NCBI RefSeq assembly: GCF_000238395.3
Contig: NZ_CP011025.1
Location: forward strand, 2,232,001 to 2,296,000
Length of the DNA: 64,000 nucleotides
Direction: 5' to 3'
Source of the DNA: Pseudoalteromonas arctica A 37-1-2
GTDB lineage: Bacteria; Pseudomonadota; Gammaproteobacteria; Enterobacterales; Alteromonadaceae
Below the pieces are notes generated by a model. It saw nothing but the letters and a program-made list of their open reading frames with translations, had not been told where the DNA came from and did no database searches. The translations under genes and the position numbers were made by a program. Position 1 is the first letter of the stretch; each line of letters starts with the position of its first letter. Shown one piece after another: positions 57,933-64,000 of the stretch.

Positions 57933-58484
57933 TTAATCATCCTTTAATGGTTTGATCATTCTAATTAAGGTTTTATCTTTATCGATAAAGTGATGTTTTA
58001 ACGCCCCTAGTGCATGCAATACTGCAAACCCGATTAATGTGCACGCGCCGTAATAATGTACTTTTCCTGCAATATCGGCTTGGTCATCAAAGGCAAAATC
58101 AAGCGCTGATACATTAAATAAAGTAAATACTTCTATTGGACGCCCGTCTGCGGTTGATATTAAATACCCTGCAACAACAATAACAGCCAAAATAATATAC
58201 ATAGCAATATGCGCCGTATGCGCTAATTGGTTCATGCCTTTACTCTCACCTAATGGTTTAGGTTGTGTAGATAAAGCACGCCATAAAATTCTAAATAAAA
58301 ATACGGCCACAAGCGTAATACCAATACTCTTATGTAAATCGAGTGAACCTTTATACCAGCTATCGTAATAAGTAAGCTCAACCATATATAAACCTAAACC
58401 AAACAGGCCAAAAATAGTCAGCGCCATGAGCCAATGTAAAATAATGGCGACAAGTCCGTAAGATGAAGGTGTATTTTTAAACAT
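57933..58484 (-). CDS. Cytochrome b561
   Basis: Inner-membrane di-haem b cytochrome of the bacterial b561 type (183 aa) with four hydrophobic helices and histidines positioned as ligands (ILHWLM near residue 17, [24 protein letters not shown]). Passes electrons between quinol and a periplasmic partner. First gene of an operon with YceI. Confidence 0.92.
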
Positions 58485-58562
58485 GTGTAACTTCCTATAA
58501 TGCTATGACGTTACAATATAGTGCACAGCCGTAAATGAAAATAACATTTACAAACACTTTAC

Positions 58563-58576
58563 GTGCGTATACGCAC
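58563..58576. promoter_or_regulatory. 14-bp perfect palindrome upstream of the cytochrome b561 operon
   Basis: GTGCGTATACGCAC lies 79 bp before the cytochrome start and after the scpA stop. Not followed by T's on either strand, so an operator is more likely than a terminator. Factor unknown. Confidence 0.4.
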
Positions 58577-58629
58577 AGAACTTTATTATTTAAAGTCAGT
58601 TTTGCAAATAGATGATTAAACAGATAAGT

Positions 58630-59466
58630 TTATAGGGTGGATTGTTCGCTTAAGCTGACATAAATTAAGCTCTCAGGGCTCACTTGCAAACAGGTAACAA
58701 GTCCTTCTTTAATAAGCTCAAGCATAGCTATAAAACTAACCACTACACCACTTCGCCCTTCATTTGGGGTAAAAAGCGCATTAAATACCACTGCCGAGTT
58801 TGCTTGCGATAGTTGCTGTAATATTTGGCTCATTCTCTCTCGGGTTGAGAGTACTTCAGCAGTAATTTGATGATGCTCAAACGTTTTTGCTCGCGCCATT
58901 ACATCACTCAGCGCCAGCATTAAGTCTTTAAGTTCAATATCGGGGAGATTTTGACTTGTATCTTCACTTATTGGCATAGCGGCATGCGCTATAAAAATAT
59001 CACGACCAACACGAGGTATATCGTCGAGGTTTTCGGCGGCTTGTTTAAACAGCTCATACTCTTGCAGGCGTTTAATAAGCTCTGCGCGAGGATCTTCTTC
59101 CTCTTCAAGCTCTTCATGTACAGGTAATAATAAGCGAGACTTAATTTGCGCAAGTAACGCAGCCATTACTAAATATTCGCCAGCAAGTTCGAGTTGAAAC
59201 TCGGTCATCATTTCTACATAACTTACGTACTGCTCTGTAATACTAAAAATAGAAAGTTCGAGTACATCAAGCTTATGCTTTTTAATTAAATAGAGCAGTA
59301 AATCGAGCGGGCCTTCAAAGGTTTCTAATATTATTTCGAGCGCGTCAGGTGGAATGTATAAATCTTCTGGTTTGTCTACAACCGCTTTACCATGCAAAAA
59401 AGCCAGTGGCAGCTTTTGCTGCACTGGCTTTTCACTATTTTTTGTATTCGCAGTGCTTTCGCTCAC
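58630..59466 (-). CDS. scpA: Segregation and condensation protein A (kleisin)
   Basis: Kleisin subunit that bridges SMC-type ATPase heads together with ScpB. 278 aa; ETFEGPLDLLLYLIKKHKLDVLELSI and EYLVMAALLAQIKSRLLLP are hallmark segments. Follows yciO after 6 bp in a trpH-yciO-scpA operon. scpB, commonly next, is 40 kb away. Confidence 0.95.
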   Translation of the reverse strand: MSESTANTKNSEKPVQQKLPLAFLHGKAVVDKPEDLYIPPDALEIILETFEGPLDLLLYLIKKHKLDVLELSIFSITEQYVSYVEMMTEFQLELAGEYLVMAALLAQIKSRLLLPVHEELEEEEDPRAELIKRLQEYELFKQAAENLDDIPRVGRDIFIAHAAMPISEDTSQNLPDIELKDLMLALSDVMARAKTFEHHQITAEVLSTRERMSQILQQLSQANSAVVFNALFTPNEGRSGVVVSFIAMLELIKEGLVTCLQVSPESLIYVSLSEQSTL

Positions 59467-59472
59467 TCGCTA

Positions 59473-60093
59473 TTACTCAAACGGGCTTGTATCACCACAG
59501 CCAACACGCAAAATCTTAATTTCATCTTCCGACAAATCGATTACCGTGGTTGCTTGCTCGGCTAAGTGGCCACCGTGAATAATTAAATCAACGTGTTTAT
59601 CTAATCGCTCTAATATTTCATCAGGATCTGATTCTGTAAACTGCTCACCTGGTAAAATTAAAGAACACGACATTAACGGCTCACCAAGTTCGGCAAGCAA
59701 CGCACAGGCTATTGGGTGTTCAATTACACGCATGCCAATGGTTTTTTTCTTGTCGTTTAATAAACGTTTAGGGACTTCTTTTGTGCCTTTAAAAATAAAG
59801 GTATATGGCCCTGGCGTATTATTTTTAATGAGTCTAAATAGCTGGTTATCTACGCGTGCATAAGTAGATAACTCCGATAAATCACGACAAACTAGCGTAA
59901 AATTATCGTTTTTTTCAATACCACGAATACGCTCTATGCGCTCTTTGGCTTGCTTATTACCAATGTTACAACCGATGGCGTAACCCGAATCTGTTGGGTA
60001 AACAACAACGCCGCCTTGTTTAATAATATCAACGGCTTGACTAATCAGTCTCGGTTGCGGGTTATCAGGATGAATATGAAATAATTGACTCAT
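59473..60093 (-). CDS. yciO: YciO/Sua5/YrdC-family protein
   Basis: 206 aa with the TsaC/Sua5 fold: VVYPTDSGYAIGCNIGNKQA, RIRGIEKNDNF and LNDKKKTIGMRVIEHP. It is of the YciO subgroup, related to but distinct from the essential threonylcarbamoyl-AMP synthase TsaC. The ATG at 60093 overlaps the trpH stop as ATGA, so this start is preferred over the in-frame start at 60129. Confidence 0.92.
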   Translation of the reverse strand: MSQLFHIHPDNPQPRLISQAVDIIKQGGVVVYPTDSGYAIGCNIGNKQAKERIERIRGIEKNDNFTLVCRDLSELSTYARVDNQLFRLIKNNTPGPYTFIFKGTKEVPKRLLNDKKKTIGMRVIEHPIACALLAELGEPLMSCSLILPGEQFTESDPDEILERLDKHVDLIIHGGHLAEQATTVIDLSEDEIKILRVGCGDTSPFE

Positions 60094-60944
60094 GTTAATG
60101 CCCCTTCTTCTCCTTCCCAAGCTTGCCAAACACCTTGGCAGTCTTTTGGTAGGTATAAATTTTTGCCAAGCTCTAAATAGCTTGTCGGAAAATGAAAATC
60201 AGACCCTTGCGAGCAAAGTAGCCCGTACTCACGGCTGAGTTCACCTAAAAATTGACGTTCGCTTGGCGCCTGTTGAGGTTGTGCAACTTCCATTGCGTCC
60301 CCTCCTACACTTTTAAATTCTACTAATAATTTGCGTAGCCACTTATTTGACATTTGATAGCTACTTGGATGCGCAAGTACAGCAACACCACCAGCGGCAT
60401 GTATGGCCTCAATAGCGGTTTGCATGGTGCACCAGCAACTTGGTACGTAGCCTGTTTTGCCACGCCCTAAGTACTTTTTAAAAACACCCGGGAAATTTTT
60501 AGCAACACCGCGCTCAATAAGGGCACGTGCAAAATGTGCACGCGTTATTTGCGCGTCTTTTGCCAGCTCTTTAGCTTGCTCGTAAATGCCATCAAAGCCA
60601 TTTTTTGCAAGGCGAACACCAATCTCTAGTGCACGCTCTTCTCGCTTTTGCTGCTGAGCTGATAATAAAGAGGTAAGGTCAATATTATTAATATCAATAT
60701 TTAAACCTACAATATGAATTTCGAAGCTTTCCCATTTAGTAGACACTTCGGTACCCGTTATTAATGAAAGCGGTAAGTTTTCTGCTTCAATAAATTGCTG
60801 CGCAGGCTTAATAGCCGCCACAGTGTCATGATCGGTAATAGCAAACACATCAATATTTTTATCAACAGCGCGATGCAATAATTCTTCAACCGTTAAACGC
60901 CCGTCTGAATGTGTGGTATGGCTATGTAAATCATATTTTATCAA
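60090..60944 (-). CDS. trpH: TrpH/YciV PHP-domain nuclease/phosphatase (RNase AM)
   Basis: Metal-dependent PHP-fold enzyme that removes nucleotides from 5' RNA ends and acts on 3',5'-bisphosphates. 284 aa with DLHSHTTHSDG, FAITDHDTV, GTEVSTKW and QGSDFH metal motifs. Start is TTG at 60944. Divergent from the trp leader and trpE, its usual place. Confidence 0.93.
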   Translation of the reverse strand: MIKYDLHSHTTHSDGRLTVEELLHRAVDKNIDVFAITDHDTVAAIKPAQQFIEAENLPLSLITGTEVSTKWESFEIHIVGLNIDINNIDLTSLLSAQQQKREERALEIGVRLAKNGFDGIYEQAKELAKDAQITRAHFARALIERGVAKNFPGVFKKYLGRGKTGYVPSCWCTMQTAIEAIHAAGGVAVLAHPSSYQMSNKWLRKLLVEFKSVGGDAMEVAQPQQAPSERQFLGELSREYGLLCSQGSDFHFPTSYLELGKNLYLPKDCQGVWQAWEGEEGALT

Positions 60945-61026
60945 AAGAAAACTGCTTAAAATTAAGGGTTACTGGTGTTTATGTAAGTATAACAACTTTT
61001 TTGACTAAATTGTTTTAAATAAACAC

Positions 61027-61056
61027 TTGACACAAAAGCATAAGATACGTTTTACT
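61027..61056 (+). promoter_or_regulatory. trp operon promoter
   Basis: TTGACA at 61027-61032 (perfect -35) and TTTACT at 61051-61056 with an 18-nt spacer. Transcription would start near 61063, giving about 29 nt before the first leader peptide. No TrpR-type ACTAGT operator is seen. Confidence 0.65.
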
Positions 61057-61091
61057 GTAGCCACTTTCAGACACATTAAGAATTAACAATA

Positions 61092-61136
61092 ATGATCAAT
61101 TCAAACTTAAACACTATTTGGTGGTGGCACTCGTAA
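61092..61136 (+). CDS. trpL: trp leader peptide 1
   Basis: Fourteen codons MINSNLNTIWWWHS and TAA, with three consecutive Trp codons at 61119-61127. The codons just after them form region 1 of the first attenuator. Ribosome stalling at the Trp codons when charged tRNA-Trp is scarce should free region 2 for the antiterminator. Confidence 0.9.
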   Translation: MINSNLNTIWWWHS

Positions 61137-61200
61137 TTATCGGGTGATGAATTGTCGTGTCTAACAAAAATTCAAAACCCGCAACTATGCGGGTTTTTTT
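61128..61200 (+). terminator. trp attenuator 1
   Basis: 1:2 pairing is CACTCG (61128-61133) with CGGGTG (61141-61146). 2:3 antiterminator is CGGGT (61141-61145) plus GAATT (61149-61153) with AATTC plus ACCCG (61177-61181). 3:4 terminator is AACCCGC (61176-61182) with GCGGGTT (61189-61195), then five more T's. The three structures are mutually exclusive in the classic way. Confidence 0.88.
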
Positions 61201-61262
61201 ATAACTAAATTTTACGAAATGTATACGTTAAAAATATTTAATAAATTTTGAGGCAGAAAAAC

Positions 61263-61313
61263 ATGAATAACGGTCTTACTCTTACACATCGTTGGTGGTG
61301 GCGCCTGATATAG
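61263..61313 (+). CDS. trp leader peptide 2
   Basis: Sixteen codons MNNGLTLTHRWWWRLI and TAG, with GAGG nine bases upstream. Trp codons at 61293-61301. Unrelated in sequence to leader 1 outside the WWW core, yet in the same position relative to its own attenuator. Confidence 0.9.
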   Translation: MNNGLTLTHRWWWRLI

Positions 61314-61396
61314 CGGGACGGTAATGATCTGTTTGTAATTTAGATATCGTTATTCAAACCCCGCATTGCTAAAGCATTGCGGGGTTTAATTTTTTG
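61302..61396 (+). terminator. trp attenuator 2
   Basis: 1:2 pairing is CGCCTG (61302-61307) with CGGGACG (61314-61320, one bulged A). 2:3 antiterminator is GCGGG (61313-61317) with CCCGC (61360-61364). 3:4 terminator is AAACCCCGCA (61356-61365) with TGCGGGGTTT (61378-61387) and an inner TGC/GCA, then AATTTTTT. Its tail ends at the trpE ribosome site. Confidence 0.88.
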
Positions 61397-61408
61397 AGGG
61401 AATGAGGT

Positions 61409-62977
61409 TTGATTTTTAGTCATATAACTACCACACCAGGCGAAGTAACAAGCATTACGCAAGTACGCGACTATATTAGTAGTCCTCTTGCATTATACGC
61501 GGCACTTGATAAGCCTAACTCACTACTGCTTGAATCGGCTGAGATTGATTCTAAAGACAGTGTAAAAAGTTTAATTTTAGTCGACTGTGCACTGCGCATT
61601 GTATGCCAAGGTAAAACAGTCACTATTACTGCTCAATCTAATAATGGGCAACAGCTACTTAGCTACTTGCAGGCAAATGTTAAAAGCTGTGATGCCACTT
61701 TAGACGGCGCAACGCTTACCCTGTGTTATTTAGACACTAGCGGCGATACTGACGAAGCGAGTAAACTAATTGCAGATAACGCATTTAGCGCTCTGAGAAC
61801 TTGTATTAACAGTATTAAAAGCACAACTAACAATCCATTTTCGTTATTTTTAGGCGGTGTATTTGCCTACGATATGGTAGCAAACTTTGAGCAGTTAAGT
61901 GATGTACCTGATGGCGAAAACACCTGCCCAGATTACGTATTTTATTTAGCCGAAACCTTAGTTGTTATTGATCATCAAAAACAAACAACCGAACTCATTG
62001 GTAATGTATTTAACGGCCCAGACGTACACGCTAACTGCTTTGAAGTAGGTAAAGAGCTAGAGCGCTTAAATACGCTGTGCGATAACGCTTCAGAATTTAG
62101 TGCGGATATGCAAAGTGGACAATGTGAGGTAAGCGTTGATATAGACGATGACACATACTGCGAGCAAGTGGTTAAGCTTAAAAAGAATATTGTAGACGGT
62201 GATATTTTTCAGGTAGTGCCGTCGCGTACATTTTCACTACCTTGTCCTGACGCTTTGCATGCTTATAGCCAGCTTAAAAAGCAAAATCCAAGTCCGTATA
62301 TGTTTTATATGCGCGATGAAGACTTTGCTTTATTTGGCGCATCGCCTGAATCAGCACTTAAATACACAGTGCAATCTCAGCAAGTTGAAGTATACCCAAT
62401 TGCTGGCACTCGCCCACGTGGCAAATTTGCTAATGGGCAAATAAACCCAGACCTAGACAGCCGTATCGAACTTGAACTTAGAAACGATCAAAAAGAGCGC
62501 GCCGAGCATTTAATGCTTGTCGATTTAGCCCGTAACGACGTAGCACGTATTAGTGTTGCAGGTACTCGTTTTGCCAAAGAGCTATTAAAAGTAGACCGTT
62601 ATTCACAAGTAATGCATTTAGTGTCACGCGTTGTTGGCACACTAAAACCCGAGCTTGATGCACTGCATGCTTACCAAGCTTGTATGAACATGGGCACGCT
62701 TGTTGGTGCACCAAAGGTTCGGGCTGCTGAGCTTGTACGTCAAACTGAAGGTAAACGCCGTGGCAGTTATGGCGGCGCTGTGGGTTACTTAACCGGTGAC
62801 GGTGCAATGGATAGCTGTATTGTTATTCGCTCAGCTTTTGTTAAAAATAACAAAGCGTATGTGCAAGCAGGTGCCGGTGTGGTGTTTGACTCAGATCCTA
62901 TTTCAGAAGCAAACGAAACTCGCGCTAAAGCACAAGCGGTTATCACCGCCATAAAATCTACGTATAAGGCGGTATAA
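61409..62977 (+). CDS. trpE: Anthranilate synthase component I
   Basis: Makes anthranilate from chorismate and the ammonia supplied by TrpG; first step of tryptophan synthesis. 522 aa. The Trp feedback site LLLESAEIDSKDS is kept near residue 40. Catalytic-domain motifs include DIFQVVPSRTF, YPIAGTRPRGK, DLARNDVARIS and GSYGGAVGYL. Start TTG at 61409 with GAGGG (61396-61400) eight bases before it, immediately after attenuator 2. Confidence 0.97.
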   Translation: MIFSHITTTPGEVTSITQVRDYISSPLALYAALDKPNSLLLESAEIDSKDSVKSLILVDCALRIVCQGKTVTITAQSNNGQQLLSYLQANVKSCDATLDGATLTLCYLDTSGDTDEASKLIADNAFSALRTCINSIKSTTNNPFSLFLGGVFAYDMVANFEQLSDVPDGENTCPDYVFYLAETLVVIDHQKQTTELIGNVFNGPDVHANCFEVGKELERLNTLCDNASEFSADMQSGQCEVSVDIDDDTYCEQVVKLKKNIVDGDIFQVVPSRTFSLPCPDALHAYSQLKKQNPSPYMFYMRDEDFALFGASPESALKYTVQSQQVEVYPIAGTRPRGKFANGQINPDLDSRIELELRNDQKERAEHLMLVDLARNDVARISVAGTRFAKELLKVDRYSQVMHLVSRVVGTLKPELDALHAYQACMNMGTLVGAPKVRAAELVRQTEGKRRGSYGGAVGYLTGDGAMDSCIVIRSAFVKNNKAYVQAGAGVVFDSDPISEANETRAKAQAVITAIKSTYKAV

Positions 62978-62978
62978 A

Positions 62979-63581
62979 ATGAGTAAAGCGAATCCTATTA
63001 AAATCTATTTTTTAGATAACTTTGACTCATTTACATATAACCTTGTTGATGAGCTTACGATGCTTGGCTGCGAACTGGTTGTTTACAGAAACAACATTAG
63101 CGCTGAGGTTATCTTTAACAAAATGCGCCAAGAGCAAGGCCAAGTACTATTAGTACTTTCGCCTGGCCCTGGAACACCAAGCGATGCAGGCTGTTTAATG
63201 GAGCTTATTGAGCTCTCTAAAGGTCACTTCCCAATGCTAGGCATTTGTTTAGGCCAACAAGCATTAACACAAAGTTACGGTGGAGTAATCGGTCATGCTG
63301 GTGAAACCGTACATGGTAAGTCTTCAATTATTAATTTAGGCGAGCATCCTGTATTTGATGGTATGGGCAATACAATGCCTGTAGCACGTTACCATTCATT
63401 AATGGCAACAAAGGTGCCTGATAATATTGAGGTTATTGCCCAGTATGAAGATATCCCTATGGCTATTTATCATCATGGTGACAACGCATTGGGTTACCAG
63501 TTTCATCCAGAATCAATACTAACGCCAAACGGCGCAATGCTACTCCAGCAAAGTGTCGCTTACTTAACACGCGCTAAATAA
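62979..63581 (+). CDS. trpG: Anthranilate synthase component II (glutamine amidotransferase)
   Basis: Class I glutaminase of 200 aa: oxyanion and nucleophile loops [12 protein letters not shown] and GICLGQQAL (cysteine), and the His-Glu pair in QFHPES. It is separate from trpD, unlike the TrpGD fusion of E. coli. Starts 1 bp after trpE. Confidence 0.97.
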
Positions 63582-63592
63582 AAGAGGACATT

Positions 63593-64000
63593 ATGAGTAC
63601 ACAACCAGAACAACCCATAAATGTTCAACACGCGATTGAGCAACTAATTACTGGGCAATCATTAAGCTACGCAGACGCCAAAGCGCTTTTTGATGAAATA
63701 ATGCAAGGTAATATGAGTGAAATTGAACTAACCGCCCTACTTATAAGCCTTAAAATTAAAGGCGAAGTAAGCGACGAGATTGCAGGCGCTGCAGCTTCAA
63801 TGCGCGAAAACGCCGTTGCTTTTACTACCAGCAGTACGCAACTTGCCGATAGCTGTGGCACTGGTGGCGATGGTTCAAACACAATTAATATAAGTACAAC
63901 GGCTGCAATTGTTGCCGCTGCTGCCGGTATTAACATGGTAAAACATGGTAATCGCAGTGTATCGAGTAATTCAGGCTCAGCCGATTTACTCAAAACCCTG
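63593..64000 (+). CDS. trpD: Anthranilate phosphoribosyltransferase, 5' part
   Basis: The first 136 codons, open to the end of the window. Transfers ribose-5-phosphate from PRPP to anthranilate. The N-terminal helical domain is followed by the PRPP-binding [17 protein letters not shown] and [21 protein letters not shown] precedes the ATG. Third gene of the trp operon. Confidence 0.96.

What the first reader, a model, noticed from the sequence alone, without database searches (positions are those of the whole stretch)
61027..61408. Two complete trp attenuators in tandem upstream of trpE
One strong promoter is followed by two separate leader peptides (MINSNLNTIWWWHS and MNNGLTLTHRWWWRLI). Each is followed by its own set of 1:2, 2:3 and 3:4 pairings. 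In both, region 1 begins at the codon directly after Trp-Trp-Trp, so the geometry is identical while the sequences differ. Enterobacterial and Vibrio trp operons are known for a single attenuator. Two in series would multiply termination, giving very low basal expression and a steep response to tRNA-Trp charging, and could stand in for a missing TrpR operator. The first attenuator could also release a 140-nt RNA.
Basis: partly seen in the sequence, partly recalled or inferred. Interest (0 to 1): 0.85.

Follow-up and report, generated by a model that had tools for sequence, protein, structure and literature searches.

The report
Two tryptophan attenuators in series
Pseudoalteromonas bacteria carry two predicted tryptophan-sensing off-switches one after the other in front of their tryptophan-synthesis genes, where familiar bacteria have one; this is inferred from sequence and comparison and has not been tested in the laboratory.

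Summary
Upstream of trpE (TTG start 61409) lie two Trp leader ORFs (61092-61136, 61263-61313), each followed by mutually exclusive 1:2, 2:3 and 3:4 helices. Two leaders are present in 45 of 46 named Pseudoalteromonas loci besides the window and in 3 of 3 further unnamed congeners. A promoter-like TTGAC(A/T)-N17/18-TTTACT precedes leader 1 in 46 of 47 sequences; between the units typical scores are no better than shuffles, and in 30 of 45 rows only 18-29 nt separate terminator 1 from leader 2. The reading: two complete ribosome-mediated attenuators in series on one transcript, sensing the same charged tRNA. TrpR is absent, but also from single-attenuator relatives, so its loss may permit the doubling but does not explain it. 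The same arrangement occurs in Algicola and two other lineages. Other TrpR-less families have a second Trp uORF without an evident terminator; in 18 of 52 genera of the family it ends WFxWWLxPxYAG. No published description was found in the held library. Function is inferred only.

The parts
61027..61056 (+). predicted sigma70 promoter TTGACA-N18-TTTACT
   Evidence: motif present in 46 of 47 Pseudoalteromonas sequences, 29-39 nt upstream of leader 1 in 44 of the 46
61092..61136 (+). leader peptide 1 ORF MINSNLNTIWWWHS
   Evidence: WWW(H/R)S conserved in the genus
61128..61146 (+). unit 1 1:2 hairpin, CACUCG with CGGGUG
   Evidence: every cell with letters pairs in 34 sequences (two of the six pairs have gaps in 12); three sequences have changes on both sides of the innermost pair
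61141..61181 (+). unit 1 2:3 antiterminator
   Evidence: in the isolated segment the MFE pairs GGG of region 2 with CCC of region 3 in 34 of 34 sequences, median z -3.1
61174..61200 (+). unit 1 intrinsic terminator (3:4) with T tract
   Evidence: not listed on the + strand by the simple scanner
61201..61262 (+). spacer with Shine-Dalgarno-like GAGG before leader 2; no promoter-like site better than chance in this lineage
61263..61313 (+). leader peptide 2 ORF MNNGLTLTHRWWWRLI
   Evidence: second Trp leader in 45 of 46 named relatives
61302..61320 (+). unit 2 1:2 hairpin, CGCCUG with CGGG-A-CG
   Evidence: 93.7% of cells paired in 37 sequences
61313..61364 (+). unit 2 2:3 antiterminator
   Evidence: in the isolated segment the MFE pairs GGG:CCC in 37 of 37 sequences; median z -1.4, weaker than unit 1
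61356..61395 (+). unit 2 intrinsic terminator (3:4), T tract after AA
   Evidence: not listed by the simple scanner
61409..62977 (+). trpE (TTG start), first gene of the regulated operon; followed by a glutamine amidotransferase gene (trpG, 62979-63581) and an anthranilate phosphoribosyltransferase-type gene (trpD, from 63593)
   Evidence: Pfam domains, gene names inferred from these and the order

Best explanation
One promoter (predicted start near 61063) makes a leader RNA that carries two complete ribosome-mediated trp attenuators in series. In each, a ribosome stalled at UGG-UGG-UGG for lack of Trp-tRNA frees region 2 to pair with region 3 and blocks the terminator; a ribosome that passes, or no ribosome, lets 3:4 form and RNA polymerase stops, at about 61200 in unit 1 or 61395 in unit 2. 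Polymerase must get through both, so read-through should be the product of two fractions, giving lower basal expression and a wider, steeper response to one signal without a repressor. Shown by sequence and comparison: both leaders, both terminator hairpins, the alternative helices, their conservation, the single conserved promoter motif. Inferred: translation, stalling, termination at each site, multiplication.
For: Two leaders in 45 of 46 named Pseudoalteromonas loci plus the window, with a terminator hairpin after each leader in the 44 of these scanned with both leaders recognised, and in 3 of 3 further congeners (two more loci fetched there repeat L021 and L025). 2:3 core pairing in 34 of 34 unit-1 and 37 of 37 unit-2 segments. 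Own 5' and 3' halves of the 2:3 arm give a lower summed energy than halves dealt out among species in 300 of 300 permutations, both units; by sequence, native beats the mean swap in 18 of 25 and 22 of 27 (sequences are related). Changes on both sides of a 1:2 pair in unit 1. One promoter motif in 46 of 47; median inter-unit promoter score 5.2 against 5.5 for shuffles; terminator 1 stem to leader 2 is 18-29 nt in 30 of 45 rows, taking the last in-frame ATG. Same arrangement in Algicola, g22 and one Rheinheimera-like genome. The his operon of the same genome has one leader and one terminator before hisG. Published modelling gives the E. coli trp attenuator a basal read-through of 10-15% and about 10-fold range, with TrpR supplying about 70-fold (PMC1183508, section 13 read); two such attenuators in series would reach about 1-2%.
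Against: No expression data. Unit 2 antiterminators are weak in several species (z near or above 0, where region 3 was cut short for some; -0.1 to -0.8 in several). Column counts of the 2:3 helices: unit 1 not above shuffles; unit 2 above most shuffles but exceeded by a slid version. Terminator 2 of the window lineage has AA between stem and T tract. In the window lineage the 65-nt gap leaves room for a weak promoter (TTTACG-16-AATATT), and inter-unit scores of 6.05-6.5 in L002, L019, L023 and L027 reach the range of the upstream promoters (6.05-7.0). L037 has one leader and two terminators in a row; L005 has WGW, L014 and L177 only WW in leader 2. Single-attenuator relatives also lack TrpR.
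Confidence: 0.85

Rival explanations
1. Only one unit regulates; the other is a decaying relic of a duplication.
For: Unit 2 antiterminator is weak in several species; L037 has no leader 2 but keeps a second terminator; in T1lg88 the first 29 nt of units 1 and 2 are identical, as a recent duplication or conversion would leave.
Against: Two Trp leaders persist in 45 of 46 named loci and both 2:3 cores in every segment tested, at TrpE identities down to about 69%.
Confidence: 0.08
2. The units are independent: a second promoter between them drives unit 2 and trpE.
For: 65 nt of AT-rich spacer in the window lineage with an 8-of-12 hexamer pair; a few species have inter-unit scores of 6.05-6.5.
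Against: In 30 of 45 rows 18-29 nt separate the terminator 1 stem and leader 2; the median inter-unit score is not above shuffles (5.2 vs 5.5), while the upstream motif is in 46 of 47.
Confidence: 0.05
3. Unit 1 mainly makes a short RNA of about 140 nt that acts in trans, as the leader peptide of Sinorhizobium trpL is reported to do (PMC7298713, search listing and start of abstract only), and unit 2 is the working attenuator.
For: Predicted start near 61063 and end near 61200 give about 140 nt.
Against: No target was sought; the unit has every part of a cis attenuator, and leader 1 keeps its WWW codons.
Confidence: 0.05

Closest known systems
trp operon leader attenuator of E. coli and relatives (Rfam RF00513 Trp_leader)
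   Same: leader ORF with adjacent Trp codons, 1:2, 2:3 and 3:4 alternatives, upstream of trpE; stop codon a few nt before region 2 (E. coli geometry recalled)
   Different: two full units in series; no TrpR gene in the genome; unit 1 below the Rfam cut-off and unit 2 not found by the model
tandem attenuators of Salmonella mgtCBR (PMC3641672; abstract and one discussion section read)
   Same: two short ORFs in one leader, each with its own alternative stem-loops
   Different: there the two sense different signals (ATP and proline) and the stem-loops do not resemble intrinsic terminators; here both sense Trp and both have intrinsic terminators
tandem riboswitches such as Bacillus clausii metE (as described in PMC3641672) and tandem trp T-boxes of Gram-positives (recalled)
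   Same: serial premature terminators in one leader
   Different: direct RNA sensing instead of ribosome stalling; no T-box among the Rfam matches of 58000-64000

Membership tests
ribosome-mediated leader-peptide attenuator of a trp operon (each unit) | short ORF with adjacent codons for the regulating amino acid | tested here: met
   WWW in both leaders
ribosome-mediated leader-peptide attenuator of a trp operon (each unit) | intrinsic terminator between leader ORF and first gene | tested here: met
   the simple scanner did not list them
ribosome-mediated leader-peptide attenuator of a trp operon (each unit) | mutually exclusive antiterminator and protector helices | tested here: met
   predicted and conserved; weaker for unit 2; no probing data
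ribosome-mediated leader-peptide attenuator of a trp operon (each unit) | read-through depends on tRNA-Trp charging | not testable with these tools
   needs reporters or 3'-end sequencing
Rfam RF00513 Trp_leader | score at or above the gathering cut-off of 41 bits | tested here: not met
   unit 1 33.2 bits, unit 2 no match at E up to 1; so not filed as a member of the Rfam family model
mgtCBR-type tandem attenuator | two units answer different signals | tested here: not met
   in both leaders Trp is the only residue three times in a row; response itself not tested
TrpR-repressed trp promoter | TrpR encoded in the genome | tested here: not met
   PF01371 absent from own genome; control E. coli found
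T-box leader | T-box covariance match | tested here: not met
   no T-box among Rfam matches with E up to 1 in 58000-64000

The most novel reading that the evidence does not exclude
TrpR-less marine gammaproteobacteria share an undescribed two-stage Trp leader: a classical attenuator followed by a second Trp uORF placed just before the first gene of the operon. The second stage exists in two forms, a full second attenuator (Pseudoalteromonas, Algicola, others) and, in Colwellia-like genera, a 20-residue peptide whose amino-acid sequence (WFxWWLxPxYAG-stop) is itself conserved and may arrest ribosomes or couple translation, so that one amino acid is sensed twice by different means.
Probability: 0.4. 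Interest if true: 0.8.

Novelty: new variant of a known kind. Interest (0 to 1): 0.64.

Why it matters
Attenuation of trp is a textbook mechanism taught as one leader plus the TrpR repressor. A genus-wide serial attenuator for a single amino acid would show another way to gain dynamic range without a repressor, make the multiplication of two termination decisions testable in a natural system, and point to a wider, apparently unrecorded second Trp-sensing stage in TrpR-less marine bacteria.

Tried and rejected
TrpR loss as the cause of doubling: rejected as sufficient, since single-attenuator relatives lack TrpR too. Conserved internal promoter: rejected for the genus as a whole, not for every species. 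Column-wise covariation of the 2:3 arm: unit 1 not above shuffles, unit 2 above most shuffles but exceeded by a slid version, probably because the helix shifts between species; the partner-permutation test is subject to relatedness. Leader stop-codon placement as a marker of leaky versus tight attenuators: the stop lies 1-7 nt before region 2 in both units of Pseudoalteromonas, and inside or past region 2 in 20 of 56 single-attenuator loci of the family and 16 of the 27 measurable ones in other families; only a trend. The weak minus-strand sRNA matches in Rfam are most likely the terminator hairpin read backwards. L224 (family f20) has a 37-residue ORF with WW and a hairpin further upstream; I read it as the tail of an upstream gene and did not count it. 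A literature search for 'two attenuators' returned mostly optics and electronics (listing only).

Rows left out before counts: one search used 34 of 41 distinct unit-1 sequences (near-copies and L037 dropped, ends of four set by hand) and 37 unit-2 sequences (36 of 38 distinct ones plus L005 added by hand); one search used 25 and 27 of these; one search used a leader-1 start set by hand for L041, and 45 inter-unit regions (L005 and L037 without).

Full report
What is there. The window lies in a Pseudoalteromonas genome (TrpE 97-98% identical to P. sp. FUC4 and P. fuliginea). Upstream of trpE (TTG start at 61409; Pfam anthranilate synthase domains) are two leader ORFs with three successive Trp codons, MINSNLNTIWWWHS (61092-61136) and MNNGLTLTHRWWWRLI (61263-61313), each followed by a terminator hairpin (61174-61197, -13.6 kcal/mol; 61356-61387, -21 kcal/mol) that folds far better than shuffles (z -5.7 and -5.4). 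The simple scanner listed neither on the + strand and did not list the promoter. Between leader and terminator each unit has a 1:2 hairpin that begins at the codon after Trp-Trp-Trp and a 2:3 antiterminator with a CGGG:CCCG core. Two WWW leaders occurred in 0 of 2000 shuffles of the intergenic region, one in 4.

Conservation. Of 46 named Pseudoalteromonas loci fetched besides the window (L001-L045, L079), 45 have two Trp leaders (the second leader of L005 reads WGW, of L014 WW). The terminator scan recognised both leaders in 44 and found a hairpin with a T-rich tail after each; unit 2 of L005 was seen. The exception, L037, has one leader followed by two terminators. Three of three further, unnamed congeners agree (L176-L178; L177 leader 2 reads WW); two more loci of that call are copies of L021 and L025. 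In segments without region 4, the 2:3 core is in the minimum-energy fold of 34 of 34 unit-1 and 37 of 37 unit-2 sequences given (see Tried and rejected for rows left out). Median z is -3.1 for unit 1 (33 of 34 below -1.5) but only -1.4 for unit 2 (17 of 37 below -1.5), -1.6 when region 3 is taken whole (27 sequences). Dealing the 3' halves out among species gave a higher summed energy in 300 of 300 permutations for both units; sequence by sequence the native arm beat the mean swap in 18 of 25 and 22 of 27. Relatedness is not controlled. In unit 1 the innermost pair of 1:2 is G-C in 31, A-U in 2 and U-A in 1. Column counts for 2:3 are mixed: unit 1 not above shuffles, unit 2 above most shuffles but exceeded when slid by 3.

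One transcript. TTGAC(A/T)-N17/18-TTTACT stands upstream of leader 1 in 46 of 47 sequences, 29-39 nt from it in 44 of the 46; L037 reads TTGACA-N18-TCTACT. The best promoter-like score between the units has median 5.2 against 5.5 for shuffles, though L002, L019, L023 and L027 reach 6.05-6.5, within the range of the upstream scores. In 30 of 45 rows only 18-29 nt lie between the end of the terminator 1 stem and the last in-frame ATG of leader 2, too little for a separate promoter and its start. The window lineage has 65 nt, so an internal start cannot be excluded there from sequence alone.

Distribution. In 100 trpE upstream regions from 52 genera of the family (of 157 genomes searched, 156 with TrpE; regions), two leaders each with a terminator were also seen in g22 (L081), in both g29 genomes (L082 and L083, the latter identical to Algicola L046) and in one g45 genome (L138, Rheinheimera-like). 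In 60 regions from other families of the order (of 138 genomes searched, 119 with a TrpE match; regions) I accept none as two full attenuators; L224 is discussed in Tried and rejected. The Vibrio-like f21 regions had one leader in 6 of 6 and the Enterobacteriaceae-like f18 regions in 4 of 5. A TrpE tree of 68 rows puts all 15 Pseudoalteromonas rows in one clade (100/100); the two-attenuator label needs 4 changes, 3 forced by well-supported branches, so parallel gain and repeated loss are both open. In the deepest Pseudoalteromonas branch the first 29 nt of the units are identical in T1lg88 and differ at two sites in T1lg75, as expected from duplication or conversion.

TrpR. PF01371 finds no TrpR in this genome and none over the cut-off in the 46 relatives searched out of 47 handles given (L038 not held; 3 of 46 have partial matches below the cut-off; completeness not stated), single-attenuator species included. 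In the order sample 47 of 138 genomes have TrpR over the cut-off. Of the 60 fetched non-family regions, the 11 with a second W.W uORF after the attenuator come from genomes without TrpR, while 25 of the other 49, some of them with no Trp leader found, have it. One f11 genome, G236, has TrpR; its leader was not fetched. So absence of TrpR goes with a second Trp uORF but does not suffice for it.

How it most likely works. Each unit should act like the E. coli trp attenuator. Published modelling (PMC1183508, section 13 and passages read) puts that attenuator at 10-15% basal read-through with about a 10-fold range, and TrpR at about 70-fold. Two in series would give roughly 1-2% basal read-through and up to about 100-fold range from one signal; this product is my inference. 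The same genome has a single leader and terminator before hisG, so doubling is not general there; other amino-acid operons were not looked at.

Second uORFs without terminator. In f11, f12, f25, some Rheinheimera-like genomes and Colwellia-like genera a second Trp uORF follows the first attenuator without an evident terminator of its own; weak hairpins overlap it in some Rheinheimera (L058, L065, L093, L102) and follow it in L166. In 23 such regions, picked because they hold the ORF, an ORF with nearby Trp residues appeared in 0-10 of 500 shuffles each. In the Colwellia-like form the peptide ends K-V-K-S-W-F-I-W-W-L-L-P-I-Y-A-G or near it: 330 synonymous against 172 non-synonymous codon differences among 12 genomes of 10 genera, against 12 and 460 in the +1 frame. 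The 12 were collected with a protein pattern that fixes most of the last twelve residues and the stop, so the ratio is biased upward; the synonymous variety at the fixed residues is the firmer sign. A DNA pattern for it occurs exactly once in each of 52 of 157 genomes (18 of 52 genera) and never in the reversed control; compared by eye, 49 of the 52 lie 0.05-1.2 kb upstream of the TrpE match on the same strand, and 3 have no listed TrpE match to compare. In the seven genomes looked at where trpE is further away (0.3 to 1.1 kb from where the TrpE match begins), the uORF lies 30-81 nt before a gene of about 337 codons (DAHP synthase by Pfam in the one tested), then a TrpE-like ORF, and a WWW leader with a hairpin precedes it.

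Novelty. In the held library 'tandem attenuators' appears in 14 papers (listing); [quoted passage not shown] Searches for Pseudoalteromonas with attenuator and leader peptide found 0 papers, Pseudoalteromonas with trp operon 1 (on curli, listing only), and Colwellia with trpE, leader and attenuat- 0. Key comparative papers in subscription journals are not held, so prior mention cannot be excluded.

Noticed in passing
L120, L126, L131, L135, L136, L143, L146, L148, L157, L160, L166, L170; L281-L287: A peptide of about 20 residues ending WFxWWLxPxYAG-stop lies between the trp attenuator and the first gene of the operon; its DNA pattern is found once each in 52 of 157 genomes (18 of 52 genera). 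It has no evident terminator and looks like a sequence-dependent regulatory peptide.
   Followed up: partly
L201-L206, L231, L232, L234, L239, L240: In families f11, f12 and f25 a short uORF with a W-R-W motif near its end (further from it in L231) follows attenuator 1 directly before trpE, without a terminator.
   Followed up: partly
L091, L093, L102 (also L050, L052, L065): Some Rheinheimera have a second uORF SWRWWQF...GP..D.C without an evident terminator; a related genome (L138) has RWHWWRLPV with one, possible intermediate states.
   Followed up: partly
L041 2703-2798 and 2851-2944; L043: First 29 nt of units 1 and 2 identical in Pseudoalteromonas sp. T1lg88 and different at two sites in T1lg75: duplication or gene conversion.
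   Followed up: partly
L037 2841-2959: Pseudoalteromonas sp. NBT06-2 has one WWW leader followed by two terminators in a row, and a variant -10 (TTGACA-N18-TCTACT).
   Followed up: partly
61396-61420: trpE has a TTG start here (GTG or ATG in others) with a GGAATGAGG just upstream, seen in the Pseudoalteromonas loci printed, that could act as Shine-Dalgarno or as a tiny overlapping ORF.
   Followed up: no
L289: The his operon of the same genome has a single leader MRLNLTTVHHHHHSPE and one terminator hairpin before hisG.
   Followed up: yes
leaders of single-attenuator relatives (L081-L240): The leader stop codon lies inside or past region 2 in 20 of 56 single-attenuator loci of the family but in no unit of Pseudoalteromonas measured, a possible mark of tight versus leaky designs.
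   Followed up: partly
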